From positions 558,001 to 622,000 of the forward strand of contig JBCAML010000023.1 of assembly GCA_038503075.1 (NCBI GenBank): 64,000 nucleotides of DNA. The letters run 5' to 3'. Source of the DNA: Gyromitra esculenta (lineage: Eukaryota > Ascomycota > Pezizomycetes > Pezizales > Discinaceae). Below, in pieces: positions 10,173 through 44,654 of this stretch. Within the stretch, counting starts at the first letter, position 1, and each line of letters opens with the position of its first letter. Position numbers and translations under genes: made by a program. Below the pieces are notes generated by a model. It ran no database searches. It was not told where the DNA came from and saw nothing but the letters and a program-made list of their open reading frames with translations.

Positions 10173-10596
10173 ATCAGATTTCATGGATAGAAACGAGTAA
10201 TGGGTCAAGGCTATTGTGTTGGTTGTAATGGTTTCGGTTAGGGAATACAATGTCTTTGTTGTTCGGTTGTAGTTCGGTTATGAGTTTTCATATGTCAAAA
10301 ACGGGGTATTTAAGGGATGGGTATTCTATTGTTTTGTATCTTCTCTTTTCTTTTCTTAAGCAACATTCTCGTTGATCTTCTTCTGTATTGTTCAAATACT
10401 ACCTCGGTTCTACCTCAGAGCCCTTGCTGTCGCTTTTCACCTCGCTGCACTTATCTCACCTCGAGATAGACCCTTACGTAGGACCTGTAGAAACACCTCA
10501 CCTGCCGAACTTGTTAGAAACCTTGTTTAAGTAGCACTGTTTATCTTCAGGGATACTGAAGGGCTTAACGAGAAACATAACAGTTGGATCAGACTT
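10173..10596 (+). mobile_element. SINE-like retroposon with GGATA hairpin, copy S1
   Basis: The element at 10182-10587 (406 bp) is flanked by ATCAGATTT (10173-10181) and ATCAGACTT (10588-10596), a 9-bp duplication with one mismatch. It begins CATGGAT and carries GGGGTATTTAAG, CTTAAGCAAC and ACCTCGGTTCTACCTCAGA. It ends shortly after the perfect hairpin CTTCAG-GGATA-CTGAAG. It has no TG..CA ends and no ORF. This is the best outside copy for defining the full-length unit. Confidence 0.82.
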
Positions 10597-10845
10597 CAAT
10601 GACATATTACTCGTGTTTGCTAATCCATTTCTTCTTGAGGTGTTGATATGTCCATCGTGGCTTCTATCTTCACCAGTAAATTCACACTCTGTCTACCATC
10701 GCTTCTGTTGGTTTTGGGTATTGCCATAGAAACTTTGTTGTAGTGTCTGTGCTGTGTATTTCTGCTGACTCCATTTGTGTCAAAGGCTGTTCTCCTATCC
10801 CCAATTCCGGTTACACGATGAGACAACGAGTACGTTCAATACACT

Positions 10846-11679
10846 GATACGCTTTCACAGATTGAGATATAATGTTGGGTTAGGGTTCGGTTCAATAGTT
10901 GCGGTGGATTTCTGGTTCTTGTTATAATGTCTTTGTGATTCGGTTGTTAACAGGTATTGGTTGCGGCGTGGAAAAGCGAGGTATTTAAGCGATGGATTTC
11001 GTTTGTTCTTTGTCTTCTTCTTCTTTTCTCATTAAGCAACGTTCTTGTTTTACTTCTACCTGTATTACTTCAATAATACCTCGATTCTACCTCAGAATCC
11101 TCGCTGTCACGGTTTACTTTGCTGCACTTATCTCGCCTTGAGATAGACCACACGTAGAACCTGTAGAAATCTCAAGGGGGCAAGATTCCCTTCAAGCTCT
11201 CTGGTATCTCCAGAGATGAGCAGTGCTACTTGAATGAGAAATTAGACGACGAGAGAAGGTACAAGAATTACACAGGCTATAGGAAAGGTTCAAGTTGTAA
11301 TGACTTGAAGACAGCGACAGCGAAAAGTTACAAGGTGTAACCGGGGTTTGTATTTGCGAGATACAAGAGTAACTATAGAAGACATTGCTTAAGAGAGGAA
11401 GAAGAATAGTACAACCAGAAGGGAGAATCCTTCGCTTATATACCCATAATCCGACTTTCTGCTGACAAACGTATGACTCATTGTAAAAGGAAACCAAAGG
11501 AAACGTAAAGAACCACAACAACCAACAACCATGTAACCATATACCCAACCGACCAACGAAATAACCATCCATGAAAAGAAACTCTGTACTGTCTAAATGC
11601 CTCCTATCTCGTCTAAGTAGCACTGCTCACCTTCAGGGATACTGAAGGGCTTAGCGAGAAGAGATCCGTGAGATACGCC
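10846..11679 (+). mobile_element. SINE-like retroposon, copy S2, split by copy S3
   Basis: The span 10854-11671 is flanked by GATACGCT (10846-10853) and GATACGCC (11672-11679). Subtracting the nested copy S3 and its target duplication leaves 406 bp, the same as the uninterrupted copies. It starts with a degraded CACAGATTGAG and ends after the perfect hairpin CTTCAG-GGATA-CTGAAG near 11632-11648. The host is the family-2 MITE, whose sequence continues across the duplication. Confidence 0.82.
11174..11576 (-). mobile_element. SINE-like retroposon, subfamily 2, copy S3
   Basis: This 403-bp element is inserted into copy S2 at its GTAGAAATCT motif. Imperfect flanks AGAAATCTC (11165-11173) and AGAAACTCT (11577-11585) mark the target duplication. 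On the minus strand it begins CATGGATGG and ends after the hairpin CTCTGG-AGATA-CCAGAG, whose stem differs from that of S1 and S2 but is fully paired. The 143-codon frame crossing it (11192-11623) is not a gene: the homologous copies do not keep it. Confidence 0.8.
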
Positions 11680-12072
11680 TAGTACGTCCCGCATGCCCAT
11701 ACGCCCACACCAATAGCCACATGCCCAGGACACCCGTATGCACGTACTCCCAATCGCTACCTCGGCCGGATTCTTCTAAGTCAGAATCTTAGTCCTCTCT
11801 TTGGAGGATCACTCTGACCTCACCCACGCCTTCCGATAGCATTTCACTTATATGAGCCACACCTCCCACCTCCTACCTGTCCTTTCTCTTCTCTGCCCAG
11901 AAAAGATCTTTGTTAACACATGACTTGGCGATATACTCTGTGCTCACCTCTCCACCGGGTGCCCAAAATGCTGCCTGTTCGACAGCAGGATTGACTTCCT
12001 TATTTCATGGATTAAGATTGGGTATTGGGTTAGGGCTCAGTTCGATGGTTGCGAAGGATTTCAGGTTTTTGT

Positions 12073-13447
12073 TATAATGTAAGACCGGTACTTCTTACCG
12101 CACAGGAAATCTCCAAGAAGCTTTAGATAACAATCTAGACGCTATAACCTGTCCGGTTGCTATTTGCAACACAATACACAGGCGCAACTCCTAACTGCTT
12201 CTTATGAACCGCTAAAAGATAACCGTCAAGTTCAAAGTAGGGATCGAGCAAAGTTCCGTGAAGAACTTTCAATAGTAAGGTTTTAATAACTAACGCTAAT
12301 GGACCAAGCAATTGCTAAGCGAGATAAAAGTAATTCACAAGTAAAAGAGTAACTTGCAGGGAAGTGATTTTTGCTAGAAACAATATAATATTGATAAGGA
12401 TCGTTCTTCATCACTAATGATCCGAGTCAGAGTTTACATCCACTGTGAGAGTATTTATAATGCCTCCTCTCTACTATGTTTGGCTATAGTGTGATGTAGA
12501 GGCGCTAACTTCTATGACAACATAAAACCACTTCGCCTTATCTCCATACCCGATACCCCATTGAGTTCCTTGGCCCTGATCCGCGATTCTCCGAGCAGTA
12601 TGCATGTTGGTAACATGGGAGATACGTATTCATCTTCATTGCGTTCGTCTCTTTAAGACGATCATTTCGCCTATCCGAATCTTCGCGTAGCATTGCGTTC
12701 CCTTATCTTTGTCAGTCTGTAACTCCGCCAGTTTTGGTCCAATTCGCAATCCTTTTGAACCACAGCGAAGCCAGACACTTCCCCTACATACCCTCTAGGT
12801 CCCATTCCGCCGGACGGTTTTGCTTGAAGGCCTAGGGGTTACTTTTGCTCTCTGGGACAGGTCTTTTCTGGTGCTGTCCCCCCTTCTTCTCACGGTATGA
12901 CCTTTGTTTAAGCCCTTCAGTATCCCTGAAGGTGAGCAGAGCTACTTAAGCGAAAAGGTCAAGCGACAAGGTATATGATGTTTCTACAGGTCCTACGGGA
13001 TTTAACTCCAGGCGAGTTAAGTATAGGGGTTTTCACAGTGACAGCGACAGCGAGGATTCTGAGATAGAATCGAGATGGTATTTAAACTGATACAGCAGAA
13101 GTAAGGTAAGAACGTTGCTTAAAGGAAGAAGAGAAAAGAATACAAGACGACCAAAATCCTTCCCTTAAATACCCCGCTTTGTCATCCCATAACTCATTAC
13201 CAAAGCCTAACCGAACAACAAAGACATTATAGAACCCATTGCCCATTACAATCTTTAATACCCGAACCCTAACCCATCAGTCTAGTTCATCCGTGAAACT
13301 TCTCCAAATACTATACCTATTGGAAGGCTTGGAGGCAGGGTAACAGGCTCCAGTCCCGATCCGAAAGGTGCTAAAGTAGGGTAACTCCAAAGATAGGGTA
13401 ACTCCAGGGCCAGGAACTCCTTCAAAAGGTACAGGTATAACATATAA
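12073..13447 (-). mobile_element. Solo LTR, family J, copy 1
   Basis: The element at 12078-13442 starts TGTAAGACCGGTAC and ends GGTATAACA, with a perfect 5-bp duplication TATAA on each side (12073-12077 and 13443-13447). TG..CA ends plus a 5-bp duplication fit a solo long terminal repeat. Without the nested SINE it is about 952 bp. The left ~400 bp match copies 2 and 3; the right part differs from them. No coding sequence or second LTR is present. Strand is inferred from the copies and is uncertain. Confidence 0.78.
12886..13304 (-). mobile_element. SINE-like retroposon, copy S5, inside the LTR
   Basis: The element at 12892-13298 (407 bp) lies between CTTCTC (12886-12891) and CTTCTC (13299-13304). 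On the minus strand it starts CACGGATGAAC and ends after the perfect hairpin CTTCAG-GGATA-CTGAAG. It is the innermost layer of the stack MITE H, SINE S4, LTR J1, SINE S5. Confidence 0.82.
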
Positions 13448-14870
13448 TGTCTTTGTGTTTCGGTTGTTGTTGGGTATTGGTTGTGGTATGGAAAATCGGG
13501 GTATTTAAGTGATGGATTTTGTTCGTTCGTTATTCTCTTCTTCTTCTTTCCTTAAGCTACGTTCTCGTTTACCTTCTCCTGTATTTGTCTGAATATTATC
13601 TTGGTTCTATCTCGAAACCCTCGCTGTCACTGTCCACCTCGCTGCACTTATCTCACCTCGATATAGACCCCATGTAGAACTTGTAGAAACCTTGTACTTT
13701 CCATCGCTTCCTATCTCATCTAAGTAGCTCTGCTCACCTTCGGGGATATGGAAGGGCTTAGCGAGACAGGAACCGTGAGACCCTATGCGAGTTCCATATG
13801 GTTGCAGCTCAGCTGCAGGATGGATACCAGGATCGACTTCCTTAGCGAGTTCTAAATGGTCCCAGTTCAACTACAGGATCAACTCCACTAGGGAGTTCTA
13901 TATGGTGCCTGCTCGACTATAGACTTGCCCCCATTGCGCGCTCTATACGGCGTTAAATCTGCACCAGGATCAGCTGCAGGATCGACTCCCCTAGGGAGCT
14001 CTATATAGTGCCTGCTCAACTGCAGGATCTACCCCCTAGCGATCTCCAAAGGACCCCGTTCAACTGGAGGATCGACCCACCAGCGAGCTCTATATGGCGC
14101 CTGCTCAAGATCCAGTCGCACTGTCAGATAGTTGAGCAGGAGGGCGCAGGAGGGTGCAGGAGAAAGAGGAGAGAGCATGGTAGAATATATGTATATAGCT
14201 TAGTAGTTGAAGAGAATTGAAGATATCACATATATTCATTAGCAGCGTGCCAGGAACATGACTGTGATGCGCCTATATAGACCTCAGCTCTTCCAGCTCA
14301 TGGGGTCTAGTGCGTCCAGAACCTAGAACGTAAAAGGCATGGATCTATTCTGGTATTTGTCCGACCCAGAATTTGGATAGCCACGTTGAGTGCGCCCACT
14401 TGCAAAAAACTTTAGGCGCTGCTGTAGACGTGCTCCCTAGCATAAATCCTCGTCCGGTACGTCCAGTGCGTAAAGTGTCTCACACGCATATCAACGCAGA
14501 CCCCACTTTTTGCTGATGATGTATACTTGTGTATGGCCGGTCACTCATATGCAAGTGCAGAAAAAATATTTGGTTGGTGCCAGTGCAACCTGGTCTCACC
14601 CATTAAAGTTGTGCCAGAGCAACAGCTCGGTTAGCTAGATGTACACAGTAACTCAGGGGAAACAATCAAAACATTGATCGTGGTCCCACAATCACGCTCA
14701 AAACCACAATCATAACCACATTCACAACCACAATCATACCCAAGCAATATGACCACGCCAGCCACTCAGACGTCCAATTCCTATCTATAAGCTACCTGTT
14801 CCACGACATTTACATGAGAGAGGGGAGCAAAAAAACACCTACTTCAAATCAATAATACATATGAGAGAAT

Positions 14871-15302
14871 CATGTTTTCATGGATGGTTTCATGGATAAC
14901 TGTTTTCGTTGGTTCGTCAGGTACAGGGGTACAAGGTTGTTGTGTTACGTTGTTGTTCCTTGTGTTTCTTTGGGTTTCCGTTGCAGTGAGTCAAGTCTTT
15001 GTCATCGAACGAGTTGGAATGTGGTATATAAGCGAAGGGTTTTCCCCTCTTGTTGTACTTTTCCTTCTTCTTTCTTTAAGCAACGTCTTCTATTGTTCAC
15101 TTTTGTACTTTACAATACAAACCTCGGTTACACCTCGTAACTCTTCGCTGTCGCTGTCTTCGAAGTCATTTCGACTCGATCCACTTGTAGAGCCTGTAGA
15201 ATCTTCGTACACACTCTCACTGTTAGTTTCTCATTCAAGTAGCACTGCTCATCTCGAGGGATACTTGGGAGCTTGACAAGAAACCCGCTCCTTGAGACAT
15301 GT
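14871..15302 (+). mobile_element. SINE-like retroposon, subfamily 2, copy S6
   Basis: About 422 bp run from 14876 to 15297, with CATGT on both sides (a short duplication, so the borders are tentative). It contains CATGGATGG, GTATATAAGCGAAGG, TTTAAGCAACGTC, ACCTCGGTTACACCTCG and CGCTGTCGCTGTC. The 3' hairpin CTCGAG-GGATA-CTTGGG pairs fully if G-T wobbles are allowed. The 134-codon frame over it (14872-15276) is a chance frame inside the repeat. Confidence 0.75.
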
Positions 15303-16389
15303 ACAACTATAGCAATGCATTAGTTACGGTACTGAAACAGGTTCTGGCGGAGGGAGTTGGAGGCCTGGGTCCAAGCATAGATACTCATCTCCCAGGAATC
15401 ACTTTAGAGAAATGGAGAGACTGTGATGCACACCATGGATATTGGCACCAAAATTCCGGTGAGTTAAGAAAACGTTTTTAGCAAATACTAATGTAATACA
15501 TTTCGTTAACCAGACTGAGAGACCAGCAAGACAACAAGTGGCAGCCAAAAAATTCAACGAAAATAATAGGAAAAAAACACAAGAGCAGGTGAAATTGAAT
15601 AAATTAAAGGCAAAGGCAAAAAAGTCTTGATTGGGAAAAAAGAGAGCAGAAAGTTAAAAACAGGAATGGTTTCAAGAATGAAAACAGTGTAAGGAAAAGG
15701 GAAGGTATGGACATGTAAAATAGGGAGGATTACTAGTATTATGTGAGGTAAAGTGTGTATTAATAAATACAAAATGGCTAGCGGTGAAACAAAATTTTTC
15801 TGTAGCATGACTCTTACAGGCCATAAGCAAAACAATAATTGCACCCAAACACAGACTGCCGCCTGGAAGGGCTAAATTCCGCCAAATGGGTTTCATGTCG
15901 CCCACAGCGCCAAGGCACTACTCTCCACCCTTACCCAGACCACTTTCCAATCACCCACAGTCCATATTTTTGATCACCCGACGTCATGGTCCTAGAAACC
16001 TTTTGTCCACAGTGCTTTCACAACGACCAGAGCAACCCTTCCCCTGAGAACTTCGAGGAAAGAAATTTGAACTTTGTAACAAGTTAATTTGACCTTGCGA
16101 AAAATCTCACGTCCAAACCTTGATCCTGGGGACTTATGAGAGAGTAGTAGTAGTCAAACCCTAACAACCCCTGATTACCCTGCCTGCGCTGGGGTTTCTC
16201 TACCTTGCTAGACGGGATTGCCCAAACAACGGCGCAATCTACTCCTGTCCGCTCCACCCAACCCTTTTTTTCCATATCAACACCAATCCACTCTCATTCT
16301 CTTCATTCTTCACCCCTTTCTCTCCATAGGCGAATGTTGCTAACATCGTGTGTATTCTAGTACCCAAAGTCCTTGGGCTTTCAACCCCA
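15303..16389. other. Unassigned sequence
   Basis: Short frames occur at 15299-15481 (plus) and 15672-15905 (minus). Neither has a family signature or credible gene structure. No repeat of the window's families is seen. Confidence 0.35.
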
Positions 16390-18336
16390 CTATTAGGATC
16401 TGCCTGTTTCGACGTTTTCTGTCCTGTCTGCTGTCCTGCCTGCTTTCCTGTTCGCGAAAGCACCTGTTTCCTGTATACTATCCAGCTTGCCTTGGTGTCT
16501 GTTTCATGCCTGCTTCCCTACCTGTTTACTTGTTGACCTGCTACCTTAGGCGTCTGTTTTTCTGCTTGCTTTGGGCTTGCTTCCTGCCTACTCTGAGCTT
16601 CACTCCTGCTAGCTTCCGGGCCCGATTCAGGGCCAGTTCTCATGCACTTTTTCCTGACAACTCCGGCGCCTGTTTCCTGCCCACTCCCCTGCCAACACGC
16701 CTACCTGCACTCTTACCACATCAGCAAAAATATTTTTTCCCTCTCTGACCTCCTGGAGGTCTGGGAGGCTGGGAGGCTCAGGGAGTAAATGTGCCTTCAT
16801 GGAGGAACGCACGGCGACCCACTTCCTCCGGGAGTCTCCAGGCCCAGGCCCTCTCCAGGAGTCTCCTTGAGAGCTTGCCTGCTCCTCCATGCGTCTCCAC
16901 GAGATCTCGCTGTCTCCTCCAGGAAGCCTCCAGGAGCTCCATGAAGAGTGTCACAAAACGTGATATTCAGGACTGATTCAGGTCCGATCCTGGTTCGTCA
17001 CGCTGTCACGTCGCTTATCCGGGATAGTGGATTCTTTCCGTTTCGCGAAAATGTTTATTGCTAGTCTATATGCTCTATATAGCCTATATGCTCTATGTGC
17101 AGCGTATATAATCTAACCGACCCGATACAGCTCCTCCACTGGATCCTGCCCATCACACGATCCTGGCAGCGCTTGGGGCCCGGAGTTCTGGAGTTCTTTA
17201 TATAGCGCGCTCTAGGCGAGCACAGGGGGTAGGGAGGCGTCTCTTCGGCAGTTAGCGAGCAGTCGATGTTGGAGCTCCCTAGGCAAGTCGATATGGGAGC
17301 TTCCTTGGCGAGTTTGGCAGGAGTCGCGTCTACTAGTATATGTCAGTTAGCAAACAGCCAATAGAACAGCCTCCAAGGGGGTTCTTAGGCTTCAATGTGG
17401 GTGTGGAAGGAAGGTTTTGGGGGCTGCAACGAAGGGAGGATTGACTAAATGCTTCCAAGTCCCGTGGGTTAAGGGTCTCTGGCGAGGGAATCCCTCTAAA
17501 TCCCGTGCGTTAGGGCTCTCTAGCGAGAGAATCCTTCGAAATTTTCTCTAAATCCCGTGGGTTGAGTTCGTGTAAGGTGCTTTGGGGGGATATGAGAGTA
17601 ATTTTCTCCGAGAGGAAAAAGCTCCTGCGGAGATGCGCCAAATCCTCTGGGAGGAAAAAGCTACAGCAGAGAGTTGCCAAAATCTCCGGGAGGAGAGGTC
17701 TGCGCTCCCGCTTCTCCAGGAGGTCAGGGAGGTCGGGGAGGTCGGGGGGGAAACGTCTCCCGGGGAGACACGCCTGATCTCCAGGAGGCATAATTTTTTT
17801 TGCTGATGCTGCCAGCGCCCTATCAGCCCCCTGCCAGCTCACCTGCTAGCCCCCATACGAGCTCTCCTACTTGCCCGCCTGCTAGACCTCCTTGCCAGCT
17901 CTCCTGCCAGTTCCCTTTCCAGCTCCCCCGCCCGCCTCGGCGCCCGCCTCCCTCCTTTCTTCGCAGCATGTTTGCTGCCCGCTTCCCTGTCCACTTCAGG
18001 CCCAGTTTCCACCCTGCTCACGATAGTAGTAGGTATATGTATATAGAACGCGAGTCACACAAATCAATAGACCAATACCAATGCGAGCCAGAATGTATGA
18101 GTGTGAGCTCCAGGCCAGAAACCGAAAGCCGTCCGGATCTCAATAACCCGCAAACAACCTCCGGGCGGAGCTACTACCTCCCCAAGGACTTGCCCAAGGG
18201 AACTGACCTGCTAGAGCCTGGTGCCCAGCCGGAAGGGCTACAAAGAGCACACAAGGGGGGGATATACTCTGCCCCTATTGCCCTGCCTGCCTTATTTAAT
18301 AGGAGCACAGGGCGCCATTCTTTTTTTTTGCTGATG
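16390..18336 (+). mobile_element. CT-rich CATCAGC-type element D (right end clear, left end uncertain)
   Basis: The right tip TTTTTTTTTGCTGATG at 18336 matches the other CATCAGC tips. The CTGCC-rich sequence left of it (17809-18020) resembles the sequence before copy B (16390-16718), so B appears to have inserted into one CT-rich element. I could not find its left tip. The 192-codon frame at 17800-18378 is a product of this proline/serine-coding low-complexity DNA, not a gene. Confidence 0.45.
16719..17808 (-). mobile_element. CATCAGC-tipped MITE, minisatellite family 1, copy B
   Basis: This 1090-bp element has tips CATCAGCAAAAATATTTTTT and AATTTTTTTTGCTGATG. It is in the opposite internal orientation to copies A and C: its right end (GATCTCCAGGAGGCATAATT) is the complement of the left end of A. 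It retains the CTATCCCGGATAAGCGACGTGACAG-like segment near its left end, also present in A, and only about three minisatellite units (17180-17400). Its flanks are CA and CT, so no TA duplication is visible. Confidence 0.83.
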
Positions 18337-19344: not shown

Positions 19345-19620
19345 TTGATGTACATCACAAATTGAGCTAAATTGGCTTTCAGATTTATAGTGCTATCGAT
19401 GCATATTCACACCACATGGCATGGTGTTATGCTGGAATTTGGAATTGAACAGTTGTGTCCGTGAATAAGCAATATTTTCAAATGGCCCAGTCCACCTGTC
19501 CCATTCCCAAGCTTATCGTTTCAGATAAGGGTACTGAAATTATCTTAATTGCAAGATCATATGCTCTATAACACCCTGCTGCAAAGCCAGATTTACCATT
19601 TGCAAAGCATTTTCTTTTGA
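19345..19620 (+). pseudogene. Integrase-core (rve-like) transposase remnant
   Basis: In the plus frame, with stops, the translation reads IDVHHKLS, then GFQIYSAIDAYSHHMAWCYAGI, then N-TVVSVNKQYF, then PKLIVSDKGTEIILIARSYAL. The order of AIDAYS, a run of small aromatic residues and SD-GTE matches the DDE integrase-core proteins often found in fungal genomes (the rva_4 type). The first Asp and the SDKGTE segment would be catalytic. At least two in-frame stops and the loss of both ends make it a dead fragment. It abuts the left tip of a CATCAGC MITE. Confidence 0.6.
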
Positions 19621-19656
19621 TAAATTAGTAGAAAATCAAAACAGAGAAGCAAAGAG

Positions 19657-31386: not shown

Positions 31387-31464
31387 TATAATAGATTCGC
31401 ATCACCATAACCCAAGGGCTGGATGCGTAAATGAAATTTACTTACCTTACTATAACAGATTCGC
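31387..31464 (+). mobile_element. 50-bp retroposon tail insertion, copy T-d
   Basis: TATAATAGATTCGC (31387-31400) and TATAACAGATTCGC (31451-31464) flank 50 bases. The insert reads ATCACCATAACCCAAGGGC, then TGGATGCGTAAATGAAATT, then a degraded TTAC tail. Orientation is plus, opposite to copies T-a to T-c. Confidence 0.87.
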
Positions 31465-34369: not shown

Positions 34370-34492
34370 CATGGGTCATAGAGGATCTTTCATTGGAGGG
34401 TTCATACAATCTAGCATTATTCTAAAGCCAACCAGTGGTGGTCTAGGAACGGGCAAGTCATTTGGTAATGCTTACATTCAATCTCCATATAT

Positions 34493-36144
34493 CTACCCGC
34501 CCTCACGTCCCCGTTTCATATTAACCCACCACCTTCCCCCCCTCAACTCCCTCCCTACTTGTTGGCTCGCCATCCTCCACCGTTTTTCCATCTCGCGCGG
34601 CATCTCAGCATCCACAACAGCTCCATGCCGTGGCATCTCATCATCTGAAACTTCCTCACTGTATGGAGGAACCTCTAGGTCATGCAACCACTCCTGTCCC
34701 GTACGGTCCTCAAGTTCTATATGAGACGAAGACGAAGACACATGGCGGGGGTGGTACGATGGTTTGGATGGGGGTTTTGGGGCAATGACGCGATCTGACG
34801 TGGAGACTGATGTATGAGAATGCGACAAAGAGGTGCCAGAATTACGGTTGATCCAGTCGGCAACAAAATTTCCGTCATCGCTGGCAGGTGGTATATTCGC
34901 CCCTCCTCCTTCATACTCTGATCTATCGTTCGCAACCATTACCGCATCTACATCGTAGTAATCGTATCTCTCAGGCTCCGGGTGTGGATATCCAGCGGCA
35001 GCTTTTGCAGCGAGAACACGTGAGCAGATTGCATGCAGCTGGAATAGAGCTGGATGCGGCAGCGGGAGACGGACAGGGTCTGCTGTGTGGAAAACAAGTT
35101 CATGACCAGGTGCCAGTTTCATGAGAAATTCGGGGGGCTCTGTGGGTGTAGCGGTGCGCGTCCAGACGGCAATACCAATCCCGAGAGAGGCATGCGTGAA
35201 TTCAACCACGGCAGTATACTGGTGAGTACTAGCTGGTTAGCGATGCCAAAAGATGAAGGAGCTAAGGTTGATGGTTATACCGTAGACACGTCGTCAGGGT
35301 TATAGGGGAGTAGTGATTCGGTCAGCATAGGGATGACGGTAATTTTACCCTTATCAAAAAGGTCGTGTACGTCGAGGGATAGCCACCAAACGTTGCGTAG
35401 GGAATCAGTGCTACTTCCTGAACCCAACACTGCCTCTTGTAGTGCGGTTGTTTCTTCCTCACCGCGAAAAAGGGAAATCAGGTTCCAGAAATTGGTCTGA
35501 TTGATACCGTGCAAGCTAAACGGGAGAATGTGAGAGGTCTCACCGGACGAGCGCACGTTTGTCACACAGCAAGCTTGACCATCGCGTTCCTTGCAACACT
35601 TGATAACCTTTTGGGAGCGATAGGAGGAGCGTGTGGGAGTGCGTGATGGAAGGTCTTGGCTCATTGTCCTGAGGCGTTTTATGCGGTGTCCCGCGGATGC
35701 AGATCTTGGAGCGTTGGACGTTGGTCGAACGGATAACGGGGGTGACATCGCTGTGTGTTCGGATAGCGCCTCTTCGGGTGTCGACTCCAGTCGCGTAGAG
35801 TTAGCACGATGAGCGAGAAAGGCTGTCAGGCCATCGTCGATAGTATTGACGAGCGGAATTAGCTGGACGTCGGTGATACCAGAGGCTAGCAGAGCGATAA
35901 AGGGATTGGGAGTATCAGGAGAGACTGTTAAAGTATTCGCGACATGCAGGGCAGCCTTGAGGGTTCCTACCATGGCGGGGGTGAGGATGCCTGGGGACGA
36001 TGCATCGATGCGGGCTTTGGCAACTTCAAAGAGAGCGGGAGAGGTGTTTGCAGCACAGTCCCCGGAAATGGCAGGAGAAAGGCCAAAGAAAAGGGACCTG
36101 GGACAGGGGACAGAAGGAACGGGGGCTCTCGATTTCGTAGTCAT
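34493..36144 (-). CDS. HNH_2-type nuclease domain protein, two exons, 529 aa
   Basis: This is the only gene in the window I regard as intact. Exon 1 runs 36144-35281 and exon 2 35218-34493, joined across a 62-nt phase-0 intron (35280-35219) with GTATAA donor, GCTAAC branch point and CACCAG acceptor. The chosen ATG at 36144 (MTTKSRAPVP) follows a low-complexity upstream stretch that is unlikely to be coding. Residues ~1-115 are helical, and ~118-175 are basic and Ser/Pro-rich. The HNH_2 domain spans about 180-290: ERDGQACCVT (Cys192/193), SHILPFS (His205), then SLRNVWWLSLDVHDLFDKG (Asn251, His260). After the intron the exon continues with conserved-looking EFTHASLGIGIAVWTR and LPHPALFQLHAICSRVLAAK. 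The C-terminus (~400-529) is disordered and acidic/Ser-rich. HNH_2 proteins are widespread in fungi. The fold implies metal-dependent DNA cleavage, but the cellular role is unknown. Confidence 0.86.
35219..35280 (-). other. Spliceosomal intron of the HNH_2 gene (62 nt)
   Basis: On the minus strand the sequence is ACG|GTATAACC ... GCTAACC ... ACTCACCAG|TATACT. The donor falls after codon 288 and splicing restores one open frame. Reading through would stop at once (GTA TAA). A nearer AG, 10 nt upstream, would shift the frame. Confidence 0.85.
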
Positions 36145-36471
36145 TTGGTGGAAGCTGTGACAAGGAAACAGAGAGCTGGGTGTTGTGCTGTTGTTGAGCC
36201 AGCCGGGTAACAGGATTCTATATTTAGAGTAGATCCATAACAGGTTAACGGGTTTTACAGCCCAACCCGTTCGTAACCGGGCAACCGCCCAAAAATCTGG
36301 CCTCATGAACTCCCTCAAAATATGCTTTTACCGCTGCAAATCCAGTCAAACTACAACAGCAATGCAAAATGACGAAACTCAAAGGACAAAACCTAGGAAA
36401 CAGGGGGAAATTACTTCAAGAGGCTGTTATTCAAGAATTGACTAAAAACAGGAAAATTCTGCAACAAGCAA

Positions 36472-36649
36472 CATCAGCAAAACCAGAATCGCGCTAGGGC
36501 ACAAACGATCACCTCAGAGAACTATATTCAGCCCAAGCATCATATATGGGGGATCACCCGTGGTTAAATAGCTCTGCCCGTGAGAATCTAGACGAAGCCA
36601 TATGCGGCAAGCAAAGGTGGAGCAGGTGGCTTGCTCTGCACCCCTAGCG
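36472..36649. repeat. Repeat N, copy 1, starting with a CATCAGC tip
   Basis: CATCAGCAAAACCAG at 36472 resembles a CATCAGC element tip. The stretch CATATATGGGGGATCACCCG ... GAAGCCATATGCG ... GAGCAGGTGGC matches 59150-59290 (CATATATGGGTGTATAGTGA, CACCCGTAG, GAAGCCATGTGCG, GAGCAAGTGGC). No inverted end was found. It may be the left part of another MITE into which K2 inserted. Confidence 0.45.
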
Positions 36650-37022
36650 GCGTGGATGGACGGTGGGGGCGTCCTATCAGTAACCTCGAGATCTAACATC
36701 GTTATTCCCTTTTTCGTAGGAGGTAGCGTCGACGCAGTCTTCCATAGCCGCTGCCTTCCCTATGGGCATCCCGCCAAACGGAGCAGCGGAACGACGTCTG
36801 AGGGAGGGGAGGGAGCGCCCGAATCGCACCCTACAGTAGAGCCAATAGTAGAGTATATATTCAATAGATATATCTTGGATGGGATGATGTACAAAAGTTT
36901 GTGCTCATCAAGAGCTTATAGAGAAAATCTTCGTTATTGCAGAACCCCTAACCCATACCACGTGGCTTATCACGTGGTATCGCCTTCCTTTCATGCCCAC
37001 AACCTTGCATCCCACCACAGCG
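36650..37022 (-). mobile_element. Repeat K, copy 2
   Basis: Reverse-orientation copy of the K repeat: ACGGTGGGGGCGTCC, AACCTCGAGATCTAACATCG, AGAGCCAATAGTAGAGTATA, CACGTGGCTTATCACGTGG, CATCCCACCACAGCGGGCG. The CACGTG pair at 36960-36980 matches 20320 and 60245. Confidence 0.7.
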
Positions 37023-37422
37023 GGCGCGCTCTGATCCGAAAATGTATTGCTGACGCTTATCGCCCTTGAAGATGAATCTGGGGCAGGGAGTGCGGCAGCA
37101 GACTCAGAAGTAATAAATAAACGTACAGGAACTCTTTCACCACAATAACAAAATATTCTGTCAAATGTTTGAGGATGTAAAGTATCCCATTTCTGGCCAT
37201 AGTAGTCTTACGGGAGGTAATCGTGTGGAAGACATAAATCAAGAGAAAATAAGATGTCGTGGAGCGTCACAGAGTAGCAGAAGAGGATCAGATAAAGTGA
37301 ATTTAAAAAGTCTCAACGGCAGTTAAAAGATTATAAATAAGAGATGAAAGGATGCAATATAAGTGGAAGAATATATGGAATTTCCTGTTTCGAATAATAC
37401 ATCGATGGGTTTTTATTGCGTA

Positions 37423-37560
37423 TGTATGACCGGTACTTCTTATCGCACAGGAAATCCCTTAGAAGATTAAGATAATAATTTAGAAGCTACAACTGACCGG
37501 CTACTATCCGCAAGACAATACTCAATCGCAAGTCCTAACTATTTTTAGTGAGCCGCCTAA
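37423..37560. mobile_element. LTR family J, truncated copy 4
   Basis: TGTATGACCGGTACTTCTTA, TCGCACAGGAAATCCC and GTGAGCCGCCTAAAGGTAGC match the first ~140 bp of the J LTRs. Homology then stops, and the other end is absent. Confidence 0.65.
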
Positions 37561-37721
37561 AGGTAGCTGTAGCCTAGTATTGTAGAGGTGCGGCGGCTCA
37601 GGCTATAGAGGTTTTATTGGTCTTCCAGGGCTCATCGGAAATAGTTTGGCAGTGGTACTGGCCGCTGGGGCATTCGCGTACCCTTGTTTTTCTACAGCAA
37701 TTCTGCTAGAGGGTGTAAGAA

Positions 37722-37790
37722 GTGGTGATAGATATTCCGCTATACAAATTCACCACCCCTGCTTACAGGTTCATATCCCGGTGCATCAGC
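37722..37790. repeat. Short repeat P, copy 1
   Basis: GATATTCCGCTATACAAATT, CACCACCCCTG and CATATCCCGG match 39125-39190 (GATATTTCGCCATACAGGTT, CACCAACCATG) and 41568-41625 (GATATTTTGCCATACAAATT, CACCACCCATG). There is no ORF. It may be the 3' edge of a larger dead element. Confidence 0.5.
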
Positions 37791-37795
37791 ACAAG

Positions 37796-37932
37796 TACTC
37801 GGGGCAGGCATGAAGAACTTCAACATGCAAGTGCAAGTTTACCAACTCATCCGTCGATGTGCTAGCTGATGAAGAATCAAAAACCGCTATCAGTAAAAGT
37901 TATGCTCGGGTACTTCATGCATGCCCCGAGTA
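37796..37932. mobile_element. Palindromic MITE O, copy 1
   Basis: The element is 133 bp (37798-37930) between TA dinucleotides. The left end CTCGGGGCAGGCATGAAGAA is mirrored by TTCATGCATGCCCCGAG on the right. The second copy (46269-46405) has identical length in opposite internal orientation. No coding capacity. Confidence 0.85.
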
Positions 37933-37946
37933 GATGAACACCACCA

Positions 37947-38147
37947 GTGCTTAATATTGTAAAGGGTCGATTTGCTGCATACATGAATTGTGGGCGTGAT
38001 CAGAGGTTTGTTGAACTGGTATGTGATCGTATCAGGATGGAAAGGAACGAAGAACGCCAGGCTTTTGATCACGCAGCATTACCTATGATAGCCATTATGA
38101 AAGAAACACATGTAGTTCTGGCAGACACATTTCGCGAGAGCATGTGA
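37947..38147 (+). pseudogene. Unknown coding fragment, 66 codons
   Basis: The translation NCGRDQRFVELVCDRIRMER and HAALPMIAIMKETHVVLADT looks protein-like and free of low complexity. It is short and starts immediately after the O MITE. I do not recognise it. It may be the tail of a gene cut by the MITE. Confidence 0.35.
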
Positions 38148-38732
38148 TGGCATTAAATATCTAACAATTTCAAGTACAGTCGCACCTCCGACAAACCTTC
38201 TTCCCATGATCCTTTTCCTCGCGAACATTGATCTGCTATCTGGGATAACTTGCTATCTTATACGAAATCAATCGAGACTTAGCCTCCAACATATCGTAGT
38301 GGACTGTACCCATACCTTGAGATAGATGAAGAAGTGACCCTCACGTGGTTTTGAAGTACGAGGTGAGGGTGCAGAAAAGAAGTAACGGGGTTCGAAATCG
38401 ACGATACCGTGTTTCACTTAGTTTTTATAGATGCACATCCCTGCTAGCACCCGAAAGAATTTCATTGAACACTACGTCATCCTTCAAAGATTTGAAAAAC
38501 AATTTATCAATGTGCTGTGGCTGGAGAACCTCATTCCGGCGCTAGTTGATGGATCAGGCGAGTAAAATCACTCATTTCGCCGAATGGCTGTTGATTTCCC
38601 TTTCTAGGGCCTGGGAATAGGTCTGGATCTTTGCGCACAAACGAAACTTTTCAGCACGGAAACTAAGTTCTTGGCTACTCCCTCCAAAAACTAACCTAGC
38701 ATAGCTTGCCCCGCTAAATGATCCTCGAGATG

Positions 38733-39075
38733 TGGTGAGGCGTGAGGTTGAGCGTGGAGGTAGCGATGCCACGTAGTATGTCATGTGTGTAGGGTTAGGG
38801 CTCTGTGGCAACGGAGGTTTTCTTTCTATGCTCTCAACAAGCGAACGTTTTTGTACATCTATCGATCCACTCTATTGAATATACTACTATTGGCTCTACT
38901 ATTTGGCGTACAATTCGGGGGCCCCCCCTCACAATTAGACCTCCTTTAGACATCACTCCGTTGCTCTATTTAGCGGTATGCTCTTCGGGAAGATATGCGC
39001 TTATAGAAGCTCGCGCCAACGCCTCTCCTACGACGAAGGGAGTCATGATTTCAGATCTCGAGGCTGCAGATACTC
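38733..39075 (+). mobile_element. Repeat K, copy 3
   Basis: GCGTGGAGGTAGCGATGCC, ATACTACTATTGGCTCTACT, GGGGGCCCCCCC and CAGATCTCGAGG match the other K copies in order. It is more diverged and shorter than copies 1 and 5. Confidence 0.6.
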
Positions 39076-39094
39076 GTGATCCAGGGTAAGAACC

Positions 39095-39200
39095 TGAAAC
39101 CATGGGGTGTGTGGCTTTGTATGCTATGGAGTCGTGCACGGATATTTCGCCATACAGGTTCACCAACCATGTTTTCAAGTTCTTATCCTGGATCATGAGT
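39095..39200. repeat. Short repeat P, copy 2
   Basis: Matches 37722-37790 and 41540-41640 through GCACGGATATTTCGCCATAC and the TTCACCAACCATG motif. Confidence 0.5.
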
Positions 39201-39224
39201 ACAGTCGCATCTTGTTATAAGAGG

Positions 39225-39350
39225 AGCAAACGTCTAGAATACCATGGCCGGCAGGGGGGTCAGTTTAACATACTATGTGGCACAGTGTCAATGAAACTTG
39301 GACCGCCTACTAGCCACAACACCAATTCATACACTCAGGAATACATGTAA
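39225..39350 (+). pseudogene. Fragment related to the ORF at 51949-52290
   Basis: GGGGGTCAGTTTAACATACT, then CAATGAAACTTGGACCGCCT and AGCCACAACACCAATTCATA, align with 52130-52230 of the frame at 51949-52290. The reading frame is broken here by a TAG in CCTACTAGCC and by short indels. The two are paralogous copies of one unknown family. Confidence 0.55.
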
Positions 39351-39419
39351 AAAAAAACTCGCTTCTGGGGCACACTTCTGGGGCACACTATATGCTACCT
39401 TCCTGCTAAATTATCGGTT

Positions 39420-39545
39420 TAATTGTTCGGGTTAGTGTTTATTTGGTTTGGGTTAGGTGGCTTTGGGTCAGCAGGTATTGGTTTGAAAGGATTTGGGTTA
39501 GGTAGATTAGGGTTAGGAGTACGAGAGTTAGGAGGGGGTTTAGGG
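39420..39545 (+). repeat. Degenerate telomere-like tract
   Basis: The stretch contains GGGTTAGTG, GGGTTAGGTGG, GGGTTAGGTAG, ATTAGGGTTAGGAG and GAGTTAGGAGG within ~120 bp. These are variants of the fungal TTAGGG telomere unit. It is not a perfect array. It could be an interstitial telomeric remnant or a G-rich low-complexity patch. Confidence 0.45.
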
Positions 39546-40092
39546 TGTTTCCCCCCTCTTTGGGATATTTTGAATAACTAGAGTAGTATGTTTTTTCCTT
39601 GGTTGGTAAAGCGAGCTTTATTACATATATTTCCTATGTGCGTATGTACTAGCGTTGCTGTTGGTAAGCGGTCCAAGTTTCGTTGACACGGTACCGCATG
39701 GTACATATGTTAAACTGTCCCCCTGTCGGCCATGGTATTTTCAACGTTCGTTCTTATAAGAGACGTGCATAATTCGTGGAAATTTGTTCGTTATGACATA
39801 TTTTTCCTTACAGCAAATTTTTGGTAGCCCCAGGAACTCAAAGTTGCACCCAATCTCCCTCCGTTACTACAAATTTCCATTATATCGGGGTTCCTTATAT
39901 CGAGGTCCGACCGTACTCAGTTCTTAGGCAAAGCTGACTAGTTTCATACATGTTTCACCTACTAGCTCGGATCGAATTTCACCACATACTGTGTTACCCG
40001 GAACTTGATGTCTCGAAAATTGGCATTCTGATTGGCTAGATCTGTTTGAAGCGTTGAATTCGTATGGCAGAGAGATCCCTTGCGTTCCCTTG

Positions 40093-40255
40093 CAGTGAAA
40101 ACCGGTCATATGGCGGATCCGGGGGGACAGGGGTATTTTTTTTGGTCGAGGGATACAATATCCGCTAGTTGTGCGGTTCAGGAATATTGTGTCCCTTTGT
40201 TCAGAGCACCCCTGTTCGCCACACCTCGGATCCGTCATATGACCTGTTGTCACTG
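40093..40255. mobile_element. 163-bp inverted-repeat element Q
   Basis: The left arm CAGTGAAAACCGGTCATATG + GCGGATCCG and the complemented right arm CAGTGACAACAGGTCATATG + ACGGATCCG are nearly identical. The similarity continues inward (GACAGGGGT, GATACAATAT). The centre is AT-rich. It fits a small fold-back MITE. It lies directly left of the mariner at 40262. Confidence 0.7.
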
Positions 40256-40261
40256 TATGTA

Positions 40262-41515
40262 CAGCCGTGTAAGAAAAGTCCTGGCACCCCCGCCTCGCTT
40301 CGTGACAACCACCACCATGGCTCCTCCACACATGCAATTCAACCCCAGGTACGATCGCAATCGAGATATAGCTGCGCTTGCAGATTATGGCCTCGGCTAC
40401 AAGAAAATAGCGAAGCAGAAAGGTTTAGGTCAATCTACAGTGCGAAACGTGGTGAAGAGGTACCATGAGCGGGGTCATGTTCATGATGCGCCCAGGAGTG
40501 GAAGACCATCAAAAATCATGAAGGAGGTGCGGAAGCGGATCGATTCTGTGACCTTAGCAAACCCAAGAGTGTCTCTCAATCAACTTACCGATCTGGTCGC
40601 TGATATGCAAATATCACGTTTCACGGTTGAGAAAGTGACAAAAGAGTTGGGTTTCAAGCTACGGATACCAAGAAAGAAGTCATGGTTTCAAAAAGGACAA
40701 AAGCAGTGAAGGTTAGAATGGTGCCAGGGGAAGAAAAGATGGGGAAGAGATGAGTGGCGGAAAGTTGTTTGGCTGGATGAAGCAAAAGTTGAATATATTG
40801 CTTATCAGCCTGGTCTGCAGATTAGAGTAACTCACATTGAATCTGAACTGTTAGATCAAAATCTCCTAAATTTTCAGTCAGTGAGAATCTCATTACATTT
40901 TATATCCATGGGCAAAGAACTCCTCTTGTTCGTATTCGTCAACGTGGTGAAGATGAAAGGGAAACCACAAGGGACCGTTTAGGCCTTAAAAGCAAACAAT
41001 ACGCCAACGAAATCAATTTACTGCATCTAATACCTTTTGTACTAGCCCTCGAAAGACCAGCCGATGACTTACAAATAGTAGAAGACAGTGTCCCCTATCA
41101 TAAAAGTGGTATGAAATCTCTCATATATTCTGCATATGGTATTAAAAGGCTACTTCTACCCACCAATTCTCCAAATCTAAATCCAATTGAGAATGCTTGG
41201 CATATTTTGAAGACTAGGGTTCGAAAACGGTTTACAAATAGTGAGAAAAGACCTCATTCTGCGGATGAATTGTGGGAAGCAATGCAAAAAGAATGGGATG
41301 GGATTGATCAAGATGTTTTGGATGATTTGGTAGATAGCATGCCTCAACGCATTGAGAGTGTTATTGCTGTAGGGGGTAGCAATACAAAGTGGTAAATTAT
41401 ATATTAACATGTCAGAATTTATATGTGTATATCTTTTTTTTATCTACTATAATAAATGATAATATATTATACGTCACAAAAAGTAGTGGTGCATGACTTT
41501 TTTTACACGAGTGTG
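40262..41515 (+). mobile_element. Tc1/mariner element with both terminal repeats
   Basis: This 1254-bp element has TA on both sides (40260-40261, 41516-41517). The left end CAGCCGTGTAAGAAAAGTCC and the complemented right end CACACTCGTGTAAAAAAAGT are imperfect inverted repeats that both continue into CACC. The interior is one transposase gene with one or more frame breaks. An 80-bp relative with the same tips lies at 55820-55899. Confidence 0.85.
40317..41395 (+). pseudogene. DD34E mariner transposase, frame-shifted
   Basis: The N-terminal piece is 40317-40709 (ATG in ACCACCATGG). It has a helix-turn-helix (IAALADYGLGYKKIAKQKGL, STVRNVVKRYHE), a GRPSK linker, and a second HTH-like stretch (SLNQLTDLVADMQISRFTVE). 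After a stop at 40707-40709 the frame changes: WRKVVWLDEAKVEY (first Asp, ~40765), VEDSVPYHKSG (second Asp, ~41090) and NSPNLNPIENAWHILKTRVR (Glu). There are 34 residues between the second Asp and the Glu. It ends SMPQRIESVIAVGGSNTKW with TAA at 41393-41395, the usual place for the family. All catalytic residues can be found, but at least two frame changes and an in-frame stop separate them, so the copy is inactive. Confidence 0.87.
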
Positions 41516-41539
41516 TACACAGTGTATGAACCGTAAAAC

Positions 41540-41640
41540 ATTGAGTGGCTTTAGATGAATTGTGTATGGATATTTTGCCATACAAATTCACCACCCATGT
41601 TTTCAGTGCTCATACCCCAGACAGAAAGGCGCTGCATAAA
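41540..41640. repeat. Short repeat P, copy 3
   Basis: GTGTATGGATATTTTGCCAT, ACAAATTCACCACCCATG and CTCATACCCCAGACAG match P copies 1 and 2. It lies between the mariner and LTR J2. Confidence 0.5.
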
Positions 41641-41649
41641 GTTTTAACG

Positions 41650-42513
41650 TAGCATGATTTCTTACCGCACAGAATCTCCAAGGTTTTAGATAACAATCCC
41701 AGACGCTATAACCTCCTGTTGCTATCCGCAACACAATACACAGCGCGAAAGTCCTAATCGTTTCTTATGAACCGCTAAAAGATAATCAGAGGCTGCGTAG
41801 GACGAAGAAAGCTTCCACAAGTTAACTTCCAATAGTCGTGCTTAATAACTAACGCCGGCTGCCCTCCTACGTGTAGTTGAATATCGTCATTATTGCAGTA
41901 TCGCTCGTTCGAATATACTCTTCGTCTAACCAATCCTGGACGGCGTCTGTTGCGACGCTGTCGCGATTTATGCTCGTGTCGCAAAGAACAACAAAGTCTC
42001 TCAAGAAATAAAGCGATTCTTTGCATGAAGAAAGATTACTCAAGCATTTAAACGAACGCAGTGACCTCGAGAGTATGAATGAAAGTCGTATACCGCTGCT
42101 CTATACAATATAATATCGATAAGCGCTCGTTCTTCGTCGCTAACGATCGTAAGAAGACTTCCTCAGCTTGGTAGAACACCGCCACTTATAAGAATGTCGA
42201 ATACAAAGCGCTATGTAATAATACGAACTAACATGGAGAATCCCATAGACCCCGAAACACTTTCCTTCGCTCCTACCCTCTCATTATCGTATTTACGATT
42301 GTCTAATTAACCTACGACGCAACGTATGAAATAATCTAAGTTGTCGATCGAAAGTAGTTTACTATCGATTTAATAAAGAACCAAACATCCAATCCGAATC
42401 TTATTAATAATCAACCAAGATAATAATAACCGACATGGTCGATCAACGCTAGTCCATATACAAGATCGTAATAACTCAGCCAGAATCCAACTAAACCTAC
42501 TAATAGTATAACA
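41650..42513 (-). mobile_element. LTR family J, copy 2
   Basis: TTTCTTACCGCACAGAATCT, GCTATCCGCAACACAATACA and TATGAACCGCTAAAAGATAA match copies 1 and 3. It ends AATAGTATAACA like copy 3. The left end is degraded and no 5-bp duplication is readable. About 864 bp. Confidence 0.72.
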
Positions 42514-43844
42514 CCTAATCGCACAAGACAGAGCTTTTAAAACTATAGATGGCGAATAATAGTGAACAAAAACTTAAAAACTTGAAGAAAACTCATTGCA
42601 GTCAAGTGGGTGAATATCAACCCGTCATGCTATGCAATTTCTATTTAAAACTACGTAGGCCTGAGACTTCAAATGTCAGAGCGCAAAGAAATAAATGTTA
42701 GAGTTGGAAAAGGAGGTACTAGAGGATGCCCACAAAGAAATTTTGAAGTTTAAAGGTCAAAATTTACGAGATTTGAAAACAATAAGTAGGAAGCCATTTC
42801 ACCCGATAAATATTCTTTCCCAAATCACACAGTTTGTTCAAATCCTACAAATCCTTCAAAATGAGCCTGTCAGAAATTCAGTTCCTTTACAATCACAAGC
42901 ATGATACCCACTCCGACTCAGAGTTTGAGTTTGAATTCATTTCAGTTGATGATGCGGAACCTCCTACCAATGAGCCTCAAATAATCTCTGATACTGAAAT
43001 AAATTCCCCTCTGTCTCTTGAGCCTCCAATGCCAAGTCAACTATCTGCACCACCACCTTCATTCAGAGCAGAACGTACCAACAGCCTTCGTTCAAAAATT
43101 CGAGGCCTAAGTACTTTTGCGCGTTGGCTGTTTTGTAAAATTGGGAAGGAGTTAGGAGTACTTCTTTCTACTGTCTACCCTATATGTCAACAACCATCTA
43201 CCCCAAGTCAAATGAGAGTTGGCCGTGTTAGAATCCTGACTAGCCCAATTTGAATGTGGCTTATTGTAAGACTGGTACATCTTACCGCACAGGAAATCTC
43301 TGAGAAGCTTTAGATAGCAATCTAGACACTATAACCTGCCAGGTTGCTATCCTCAACACAATACACAGGCGCAAGTCCTAACTGCTTCTTATGAACCCCT
43401 AAAAGATAACCATAGGGTTCAAGGCAAGGATCAAACAAAGTTCCGTGAAGAACTTCTAATAATAAGGTATAATAACTAATGCTGAAAGGCCAAGGCCTTG
43501 CTAAGTGAGATAAAAAGTAATTCACAAGTAATGAAAGAAATTGTACCAAGAATATCGCTAAACAATATAATATCGATAGGCTGTTCTTCATCGCTAATGA
43601 TCAAGAAGACCCTTCTCAATTGGTAGAACATCGGACTACTTATAGTAAATAATCATCGAATACAAAGGCTATGTAATAACATGAACTAACATGAAGAAAT
43701 CTCATAGACCTTGAACACTTTCCTTCGCTCCTACCCCTCTCATTATTGTATGGTGTGATTGTCAGAATTAACCAGCGGTGCGATGTGTCAGCGAATCGAG
43801 GAAATGTCTATCAAAAGAGTTGGCCATTGAGGAAACAAGGAAAC

Positions 43845-44654
43845 TCTTACGGTCTTGACTTCTCGTTAAGCCCTTCAGTATCAAAGGAAGAGCCGCTACT
43901 TTTGAGAGATCGTCGACAAGAGTCACGATGTTTCTACAGTCCTACGTGCCTAACTCTGGCGAAGTTAACAGAAAGGTTGTCACAAATGACATACGACTAT
44001 GATTCTGAAGTAGAATCGAGGTAGTATTAAAACAATACAGTAGAAGTAAGGTAAGAACATTCCTTAAGGAAAGAGAAAGAGAATGATACAAGCAAACAAA
44101 ACCCGTCCTTTAAATACCCCGCTTTCCAACTCCAATGACTCATAACCAATGACAACCGAAACATAAAGACATTATAACCCGAACTAAAATCCTATCGCAA
44201 AGAGCGGGATTCTTGTCAAGCTCTCGAGTATCCCTCGAGATGAGCAGTGCTACTTGAATAAGAATCCAACGACGAGAGTTTGTACGAAGATTTTACAGGC
44301 TCTACGAATGGGTCAAGTTGTGGTGACTTGAGAACAGCGACAGCGAAAGATTACGAGGTGTAACCGAGGTTTGTATTGTGAAATACAAGTGTGGACAATA
44401 GAAGATGTTGCTTAAGGAAAGAAGAAGAAAAAGCGCAACAAGAGGGGAATTCCCTTCGCCTATATACCGCATTCCAACTCTTTCGATGACAAAGACCTGA
44501 CTCATGATAACAGAAACCTAAAGAAACAAAAGGAACACTGGTAAAACAAAACAACCACAAACCCATGCACCTATCCGACCAATGAAACATCCATCCATGA
44601 AATCCTATCGCAATCTGCACAATATTCCTAACCCATTATCCATTCTTGTTGGTG
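43845..44654 (-). mobile_element. SINE-like retroposon, copy S7, split by copy S8
   Basis: On the minus strand it begins near CACCAACAAGAATGGATAA and ends after a degraded hairpin (CTTCCTTTGATACTGAAGG). Flanks AAGGAAAC and AAAGAAAC suggest an 8-bp duplication. Subtracting S8 and its duplication leaves about 397 bp. TACCCCGCTTTCC (a GGGGTA box on minus) and GTTCTTACCTTACTTCTACT match copy S5. Confidence 0.76.
44187..44613 (-). mobile_element. SINE-like retroposon, subfamily 2, copy S8
   Basis: The element at 44201-44599 (399 bp) lies between two perfect 14-bp copies of AAATCCTATCGCAA (44187-44200 and 44600-44613). On the minus strand it starts CATGGATGGATG. It carries GGTATATAGGCGAAGG, CCTTAAGCAACATC and ACCTCGGTTACACCTCG, and ends after the perfect hairpin CTCGAG-GGATA-CTCGAG and GCTTGACAAGAATCCC. 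This is the cleanest copy for defining both ends. A 14-bp duplication rules out a normal LTR. Confidence 0.9.

What the first reader, a model, noticed from the sequence alone, without database searches (positions are those of the whole stretch)
10173..44654. SINE-like family with a GGATA-loop hairpin whose stem covaries between copies
Eight copies (S1-S8) end with a hairpin ~30-45 nt before the 3' end. The loop is GGATA in six (AGATA in S3; S7 decayed). The stems differ yet pair: CTTCAG/CTGAAG (S1, S2, S5), CTCGAG/CTCGAG (S8), CTCTGG/CCAGAG (S3), and CTCGAG/CTTGGG with G-T wobbles (S6). Compensatory changes at three stem positions argue for selection on RNA structure. A GGAUA-loop stem at the 3' end is known from L2-clade LINE/SINE pairs such as eel UnaL2, where the reverse transcriptase recognises it. 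Seeing it in a fungal-looking genome is unexpected.
Basis: partly seen in the sequence, partly recalled or inferred. Interest (0 to 1): 0.9.

Follow-up and report, generated by a model that had tools for sequence, protein, structure and literature searches.

The report
Covarying RNA fork in solo LTRs
The repeats taken for SINEs are leftover ends (long terminal repeats) of a retrovirus-like jumping element in a fungal-looking genome, and they carry a small RNA hairpin that evolution has kept paired, probably to help the element start copying itself.

Summary
The hairpin is real and evolves as RNA structure; the SINE reading is wrong. The eight window copies are solo LTRs of a Ty3/gypsy chromovirus, about 5.9 kb long. 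Seven of eight have exact 5-bp target-site duplications. Among 100 listed copies elsewhere, 17 same-strand pairs lie 5.0-5.5 kb apart, against 2 opposite-strand, with gag after one LTR and integrase plus chromodomain before the other. The 5' LTR is followed by TT plus nine bases complementary to the predicted mRNA 5' end in 29 of 34 leaders, as in Tf1-type self-priming. The 7-bp stem is fully paired in 129 of 152 copies. On a tree built without the fork, 25 branches carry compensatory changes, 22 at one pair only; 30 such changes against 0-2 in slid controls. An outer helix also covaries, less cleanly. I read it as a U5-IR-like fork acting at initiation of self-primed reverse transcription (inferred; packaging is the main rival). 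The LTR ends are TT...GA, not TG...CA. LINEs were not searched for directly.

The parts
10179..10588 (+). S1: solo LTR, TSD TCAGA (10174-10178 / 10589-10593)
10519..10575 (+). S1 U5 fork (outer helix, conserved arm, GGATA hairpin)
   Evidence: 69.5 bits
10853..11169 (+). S2: solo LTR, 5' part (interrupted by S3), TSD TACGC
11577..11673 (+). S2: solo LTR, 3' part, with fork 11605-11661
   Evidence: (81.2 bits)
11170..11576 (-). S3: solo LTR of a second subfamily nested in S2, TSD AGAAA on the + strand; AGATA loop
11185..11241 (-). S3 U5 fork
   Evidence: 73.0 bits
12888..13298 (-). S5: solo LTR, TSD AGAAG; fork 12901-12957
13434..13780 (+). S4: 5'-truncated LTR, no TSD seen; fork 13712-13768
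14876..15297 (+). S6: solo LTR, TSD CATGT; fork 15227-15283
43845..44657 (-). S7: solo LTR with decayed fork (43859-43911), TSD GTTTC, interrupted by S8
44195..44602 (-). S8: solo LTR nested in S7, TSD TAGGA; fork 44209-44265
12003..12080 (+). ninth LTR piece: about the first 78 nt only, followed by another repeat

Best explanation
The repeats are LTRs (in the window all solo or fragments) of a family of self-primed Ty3/gypsy chromoviruses. The transcript is taken to start at AAGCAACGT, about 53 nt after the start of the TATA box. The primer binding site, two bases after the LTR, is its exact complement, so the RNA's own 5' end can fold back as primer, as in Tf1. Between the two, near the 3' end of the LTR, sits a forked stem whose base ends about 14-17 nt before the LTR end: an outer helix of up to 10 bp, a nearly invariant 12-nt arm (UAGCACUGCUCA), and a 7-bp hairpin with loop GGAUA. 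It is kept as structure and, in loop and arm, as sequence, most likely because RT/RNase H or Gag must recognise the leader when the self-primer is set and cut, the role given to the U5-IR stem-loop of retroviruses and Tf1. Shown by sequence: LTR identity, chromovirus genes, complementarity, covariation. Inferred: transcript start, priming, the binding partner, and the step at which the fork acts.
For: Same-strand spacing peak at 5,000-5,499: 17 pairs against 2 opposite-strand among 100 of 1654 places. Pfam on four open pieces from three loci: Retrotrans_gag, Asp protease, RVT_1, RNase H, H2C2, rve, SH3_Tf2-1 (64.3 bits, cut-off 30), Chromo. Identical 5-bp flanks at TTTCAYGG...GAGA in 49 of 107 rows; other 5-bp frames at most 12. 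498 exact GAGA-TT-ACGTTGCTT junctions genome-wide, control 0. First 15 internal nt versus the LTR: longest complement 9 nt at the same place in 29 of 34 leaders; 9 or more in 5 of 680 shuffles. 129 of 152 hairpins pair 7/7. Inner stem: 34 same-branch changes, null mean 5.9, max 14, slid 5-11; 30 compensatory, slid 0-2, on 25 branches, 22 of them one pair only. Outer helix: 42 same-branch changes, null mean 17.2, max 32, slid 10-22; 22 compensatory, slid 0-5. Mean pairing probability above 0.5: hairpin in 34 of 34 leaders, self-primer:PBS in 24 of 34. Two LTR pairs differ at 1 of 407 and 3 of 418 sites, so copying was recent.
Against: No transcript data. The self-primer:PBS duplex is not clearly predicted in 10 of 34 leaders, and its two sides hardly vary, so covariation cannot test it. 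In Tf1 the two extra duplexes pair PBS-adjacent sequence with LTR sequence downstream of the self-primer (PMC10085805, passages); a local hairpin is nearer to the retroviral U5-IR. On 57 segments two of five measures do not exceed shuffles: pairs with a change on both sides 11 against 10.6 (290 of 500 shuffles as high) and further pair types 30 against 29.3 (205 of 500). RNAalifold on the bare 57-nt segment prefers another lower stem (columns 21-24 with 43-46) and leaves out the outer helix. An all-pairs G-test left one pair (61-69) clearly beyond its null; the next had E=0.61 (15 random flank columns were in that null). Outer pairs form in only 59-99% of copies.
Confidence: 0.6

Rival explanations
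1. The fork is a packaging or Gag-binding signal: the zinc knuckle of Gag grips the exposed G-rich loop and marks genomic RNA for the particle.
For: Gag carries CX2CX4HX4C knuckles (translations; motif read by eye). Loop and arm are nearly invariant while stem letters change (2.6 and 3.2 changes per column, stem arms 9.7, flanks 20.1 and 22.6). Retroviral packaging hairpins show G-rich loops (recalled).
Against: Nothing here separates it from a priming role; a leader hairpin can serve both.
Confidence: 0.25
2. The copies are SINEs whose 3' hairpin is read by an L2-clade LINE RT.
For: Short dispersed copies; GGATA loop near the 3' end.
Against: Exact 5-bp duplications, spacing of paired copies, gag and integrase beside them, PBS and PPT junctions, TATA box.
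Confidence: 0.01
3. The structure acts at the 3' end of the transcript (3' processing or termination) because it lies in R, not U5.
For: The R/U5 border is unknown; the fork would then be at both RNA ends.
Against: RNA 3' ends would have to fall within about the last 15 nt of the LTR; no poly(A) data here.
Confidence: 0.12
4. The paired changes are carried as blocks by template switching between subfamilies, not by repeated compensatory mutation.
For: Two subfamilies differ at several pairs at once; LTR copies can recombine; the tree is a single one and states were set by parsimony.
Against: 22 of 25 branches change one pair only, with A-U, G-C and U-A among the states at pair 61-69. But 17 of those 22 are at that one pair, so the case for the other pairs is thinner.
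Confidence: 0.05

Closest known systems
Tf1/sushi group of chromoviruses (Tf1, Tf2, Tj1, Tosmo1-3, Tcry1 of fission yeasts)
   Same: Chromodomain at the integrase C-terminus, Tf2-1-like SH3 domain, PBS complementary to the predicted mRNA 5' end, leader that can fold back
   Different: LTR ends TT...GA (a figure legend in PMC10085805 says the 5' LTRs drawn there always end CA); self-primer match 9 nt; local covarying fork with GGAUA loop
U5-IR stem-loop of retroviruses and of Tf1
   Same: Stem-loop near the LTR end just upstream of the PBS, inside the region closed by the primer duplex
   Different: Function not tested here; outer helix plus invariant arm; Tf1's extra duplexes are long-range
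Morchella sextelata Gag proteins (elements not named)
   Same: The only named Gag hits, three of nine, 42-49% identity over 54-92%
   Different: Their LTRs were not seen, so sharing of the fork is untested
UnaL2/L2-clade LINE 3' stem-loop
   Same: Five-nt GGAUA loop on a short stem (UnaL2 loop from the finding and recall; one search is a listing)
   Different: LINE 3' end against LTR; different RT class; no LINE features in these copies

Membership tests
LTR retrotransposon, Ty3/gypsy chromovirus | gag and pol in the order PR-RT-RH-IN with a C-terminal chromodomain between LTRs | tested here: met
   Gag follows the 5' LTR (L012, L087); integrase-chromodomain precedes the 3' LTR (L053, L074, L088; Pfam run on L088 only). 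The PR-RT and RNase H-H2C2 pieces scored lie outside the L087/L088 LTR pair, in a like copy it had inserted into. No element was seen whole; about 2.4 kb in the middle of L087/L088 was not fetched
LTR retrotransposon, Ty3/gypsy chromovirus | Short fixed-length target duplication | tested here: met
   5 bp in 49 of 107 rows (one window copy listed twice); 7 of 8 window copies
LTR retrotransposon, Ty3/gypsy chromovirus | LTR termini TG...CA (usual, not strictly defining) | tested here: not met
   TTTCAYGG...GAGA. LTR families with atypical ends are reported in plants (PMC5659011, start of abstract in listing)
Tf1/sushi self-primed group | PBS complementary to the mRNA 5' end | tested here: met
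   29 of 34 leaders exact over 9 nt; the 34 were chosen for near matches to both motifs; transcript start predicted only
Tf1/sushi self-primed group | Pretzel of three duplexes | tested here: inconclusive
   Central duplex predicted in 24 of 34; the other two not clearly seen
Tf1/sushi self-primed group | RT/integrase phylogeny inside the group | not tested
   No tree made; only the SH3_Tf2-1 domain hit
SINE | Pol III promoter, A-rich or simple-repeat tail, variable longer duplications | tested here: not met
   5-bp duplications directly at the ends, no tail; TATA-like box 51-55 nt before the self-primer in 32 of 34. Boxes A and B only looked for by eye
UnaL2-type LINE/SINE pair | LINE with the same 3' hairpin in the genome | tested here: inconclusive
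   176 of 178 such hairpins in 90 loci lie in the LTRs, but the loci were fetched for this repeat; of 1012 exact common hairpins 847 have exact LTR flanks, the other 165 were not examined one by one; LINEs not searched for

The most novel reading that the evidence does not exclude
The forked U5 element is a distinct RT- or Gag-recognised RNA module of a fungal chromovirus lineage near those of Morchella, with a GNR(N)A-type GGAUA pentaloop read out the way LINE RTs read theirs, coupled to an integrase that uses non-TG/CA ends.
Probability: 0.15. Interest if true: 0.65.

Novelty: new variant of a known kind. Interest (0 to 1): 0.45.

Why it matters
Self-priming leader structures are described in the papers I saw for fission-yeast elements, with relatives up to vertebrates mentioned. 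Here one genome holds more than a thousand natural copies of a structured U5 region beside a self-primer, enough to read its rules by covariation. It also warns that solo LTRs with odd ends can pass for SINEs, and it points to an integrase that seems to use ends other than TG...CA.

Tried and rejected
SINE, and Helitron (which also ends in a hairpin, recalled): dropped on the 5-bp duplications and LTR pairs. tRNA priming at the 3' CCA end: the PBS does not begin TGG; priming by an internal tRNA fragment was not tested. Rfam: no match in the window at gathering scores. Search for relatives of the integrase in viral contigs: six pattern matches, none confirmed. Hairpin pattern in viral and prokaryote contigs: 0 exact matches. 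Plasmids: none. A window ORF searched to name the host: none. Named Gag hits are Morchella sextelata; among the 120 integrase hits listed the best named are Podosphaera aphanis and Morchella sextelata, so the host is taken as an ascomycete without proof. Papers: the listings show no title or abstract start on this fork; of the papers I saw passages of five and no whole text, and most subscription papers are not held.

Rows dropped: three of 60 diverse segments with an interrupted hairpin were left out of alignment A1, so counts are for hairpins that are there; the 152 include them. In one search the L087/L088 LTR pair gave no measure because the end motif was not found. One search failed to find copies because of a wrong gap length in my expression; one search replaced it.
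Full report
What was seen. The window is G000:C23:558001-622000 of a 47.1 Mb genome in 23 contigs. The eight hairpins are there. A covariance model gives these eight and no other match at E<=5; five of the eight were in its own alignment. GGATA-loop hairpins with six closing pairs are 6 in the window, 5 of them in these repeats, against 0.35 per shuffled window.

What the copies are. The anchored hairpin pattern has 1654 exact matches in the genome and none for the reversed control. Among the 100 places listed, same-strand pairs 5,000-5,499 bases apart number 17 against 2 opposite-strand; the neighbouring same-strand bins hold 3 and 7, and no other bin up to 12 kb exceeds 10. Spacing plus one LTR gives an element of about 5.9 kb. 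Loci at such places show LTR then gag (L012, L087), and integrase with chromodomain, then a purine-rich tract ending GCTAC, then LTR (L088, L074). Pfam names gag; protease and RVT_1; RNase H and H2C2; rve, SH3_Tf2-1 and Chromo in four open pieces. Two of these pieces (protease-RT, RNase H-H2C2) lie outside the L087/L088 pair, in a like copy which that element entered; the middle of no paired element was fetched. The copies are therefore LTRs. None of the four protein pieces matches the window, so all window copies are solo LTRs or fragments.

Ends and target sites. Testing boundary offsets on 107 rows, identical 5-bp flanks are commonest (49) for an LTR that begins TTTCAYGG and ends GAGA; no other 5-bp frame passes 12. 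Some of the rest are ends of full elements, where none is expected: 25 of 107 are followed by the PBS. In the window seven of eight copies have exact duplications: TCAGA (S1), TACGC (S2), AGAAA (S3), AGAAG (S5), CATGT (S6), GTTTC (S7), TAGGA (S8); S4 is truncated. S3 lies in S2 and S8 in S7. The termini are thus not TG...CA. Two bases (TT) separate the LTR from the PBS and AC precedes the other LTR in many rows, which parallels the two bases that retroviral integrases trim (inference; retroviral detail recalled).

Priming. The 11 bases after the LTR are TTACGTTGCTT in 32 of 34 unique leaders and TTATGTTGCTT in 2. ACGTTGCTT is the exact complement of AAGCAACGT, which lies 51-55 nt after the start of a TATA-like box in 32 of 34 and behind a pyrimidine tract. 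The match is 9 nt in 29 of 34; shuffled PBS letters reach 9 or more in 5 of 680. The 34 were picked by near matches to both motifs, so 29 of 34 is not an unbiased rate; the exact LTR-PBS junction alone occurs 498 times in the genome. Fission-yeast papers describe this arrangement as self-priming and say it needs a three-duplex leader fold (PMC4600332 and PMC10085805, passages). Lin and Levin 1998, on a U5-IR-like structure in Tf1, was seen only as a title in reference lists.

The structure. In a set gathered by an anchor outside the stem, 129 of 152 unique copies pair 7 of 7, 18 pair 6, and 5 pair 3-5. On a tree from upstream LTR sequence without the fork, same-branch changes at the seven pairs total 34 (null mean 5.9, max 14; slid 5-11); 30 keep pairing, slid controls 0-2. 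They fall on 25 branches, 22 with one pair changed; 17 of these are at one pair, 61-69. An outer helix (columns 33-43 with 76-85) has 42 same-branch changes (null mean 17.2, max 32; slid 10-22) and 22 compensatory, slid 0-5, but its pairs form in 59-99% of copies. On 57 diverse segments 88.2% of cells pair, slid versions 28.5-60.9%; covariation score 0.404 against 0.225 shuffled, and cells changed on both sides 127 against 50.3, none of 500 shuffles as high. The number of pairs changed on both sides (11 against 10.6) and of further pair types (30 against 29.3) do not exceed shuffles. Changes per column fall from 20.1 and 22.6 in the flanks to 3.2 in the 12-nt arm and 2.6 in the loop. Also against: an all-pairs G-test with 15 noisy flank columns in its null leaves one pair clearly significant, and RNAalifold on the bare segment picks a different lower stem. 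On 34 leaders it returns the self-primer:PBS duplex, the hairpin and the inner part of the outer helix.

How it works. Inside a loop closed by the self-primer and the PBS, a fork with fixed loop and arm but free stem letters is what a protein-recognised RNA looks like. The place just before the PBS favours a role at initiation of reverse transcription, like U5-IR; packaging is the main rival. Both are inferences. GGAUA fits the GNR(N)A pentaloop rule (recalled), which may be why it also occurs in LINE hairpins.

Relatives. The integrase piece has 6152 homologues at E<=1e-20; among the 120 listed the best named are from Podosphaera and Morchella. Gag has nine at 1e-10, the three named all Morchella sextelata. 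Chromoviruses dominate among fungal LTR elements (PMC3248453, passages), so the element itself is ordinary. What I did not find described is the covarying fork together with the odd ends.

Noticed in passing
window 12078-12520; partial copies at 43262-43602, 41659-41785, 37422-37565: Another repeat (begins TAAGACCGG; 88-96% alike in several fetched loci) follows the LTR fragment 12003-12080; unclassified.
   Followed up: partly
window 7262-8352: Array of a mostly 68-70 nt unit with CTCGCCTAGG-type motifs.
   Followed up: no
window 59747-60093: A- and C-rich degenerate simple repeat.
   Followed up: no
window 40080-40709: ORF with HTH_32 and HTH_23 domains, perhaps the N-terminus of a mariner/Tc1-type transposase.
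   Followed up: partly
window 35275-36318 (-): ORF with an HNH_2 endonuclease domain; no homologue at E<=0.001 as read.
   Followed up: partly
L073/L074 and L077/L078: LTR pairs of what are by spacing single elements differ at 1 of 407 and 3 of 418 sites, so the family moved recently.
   Followed up: partly
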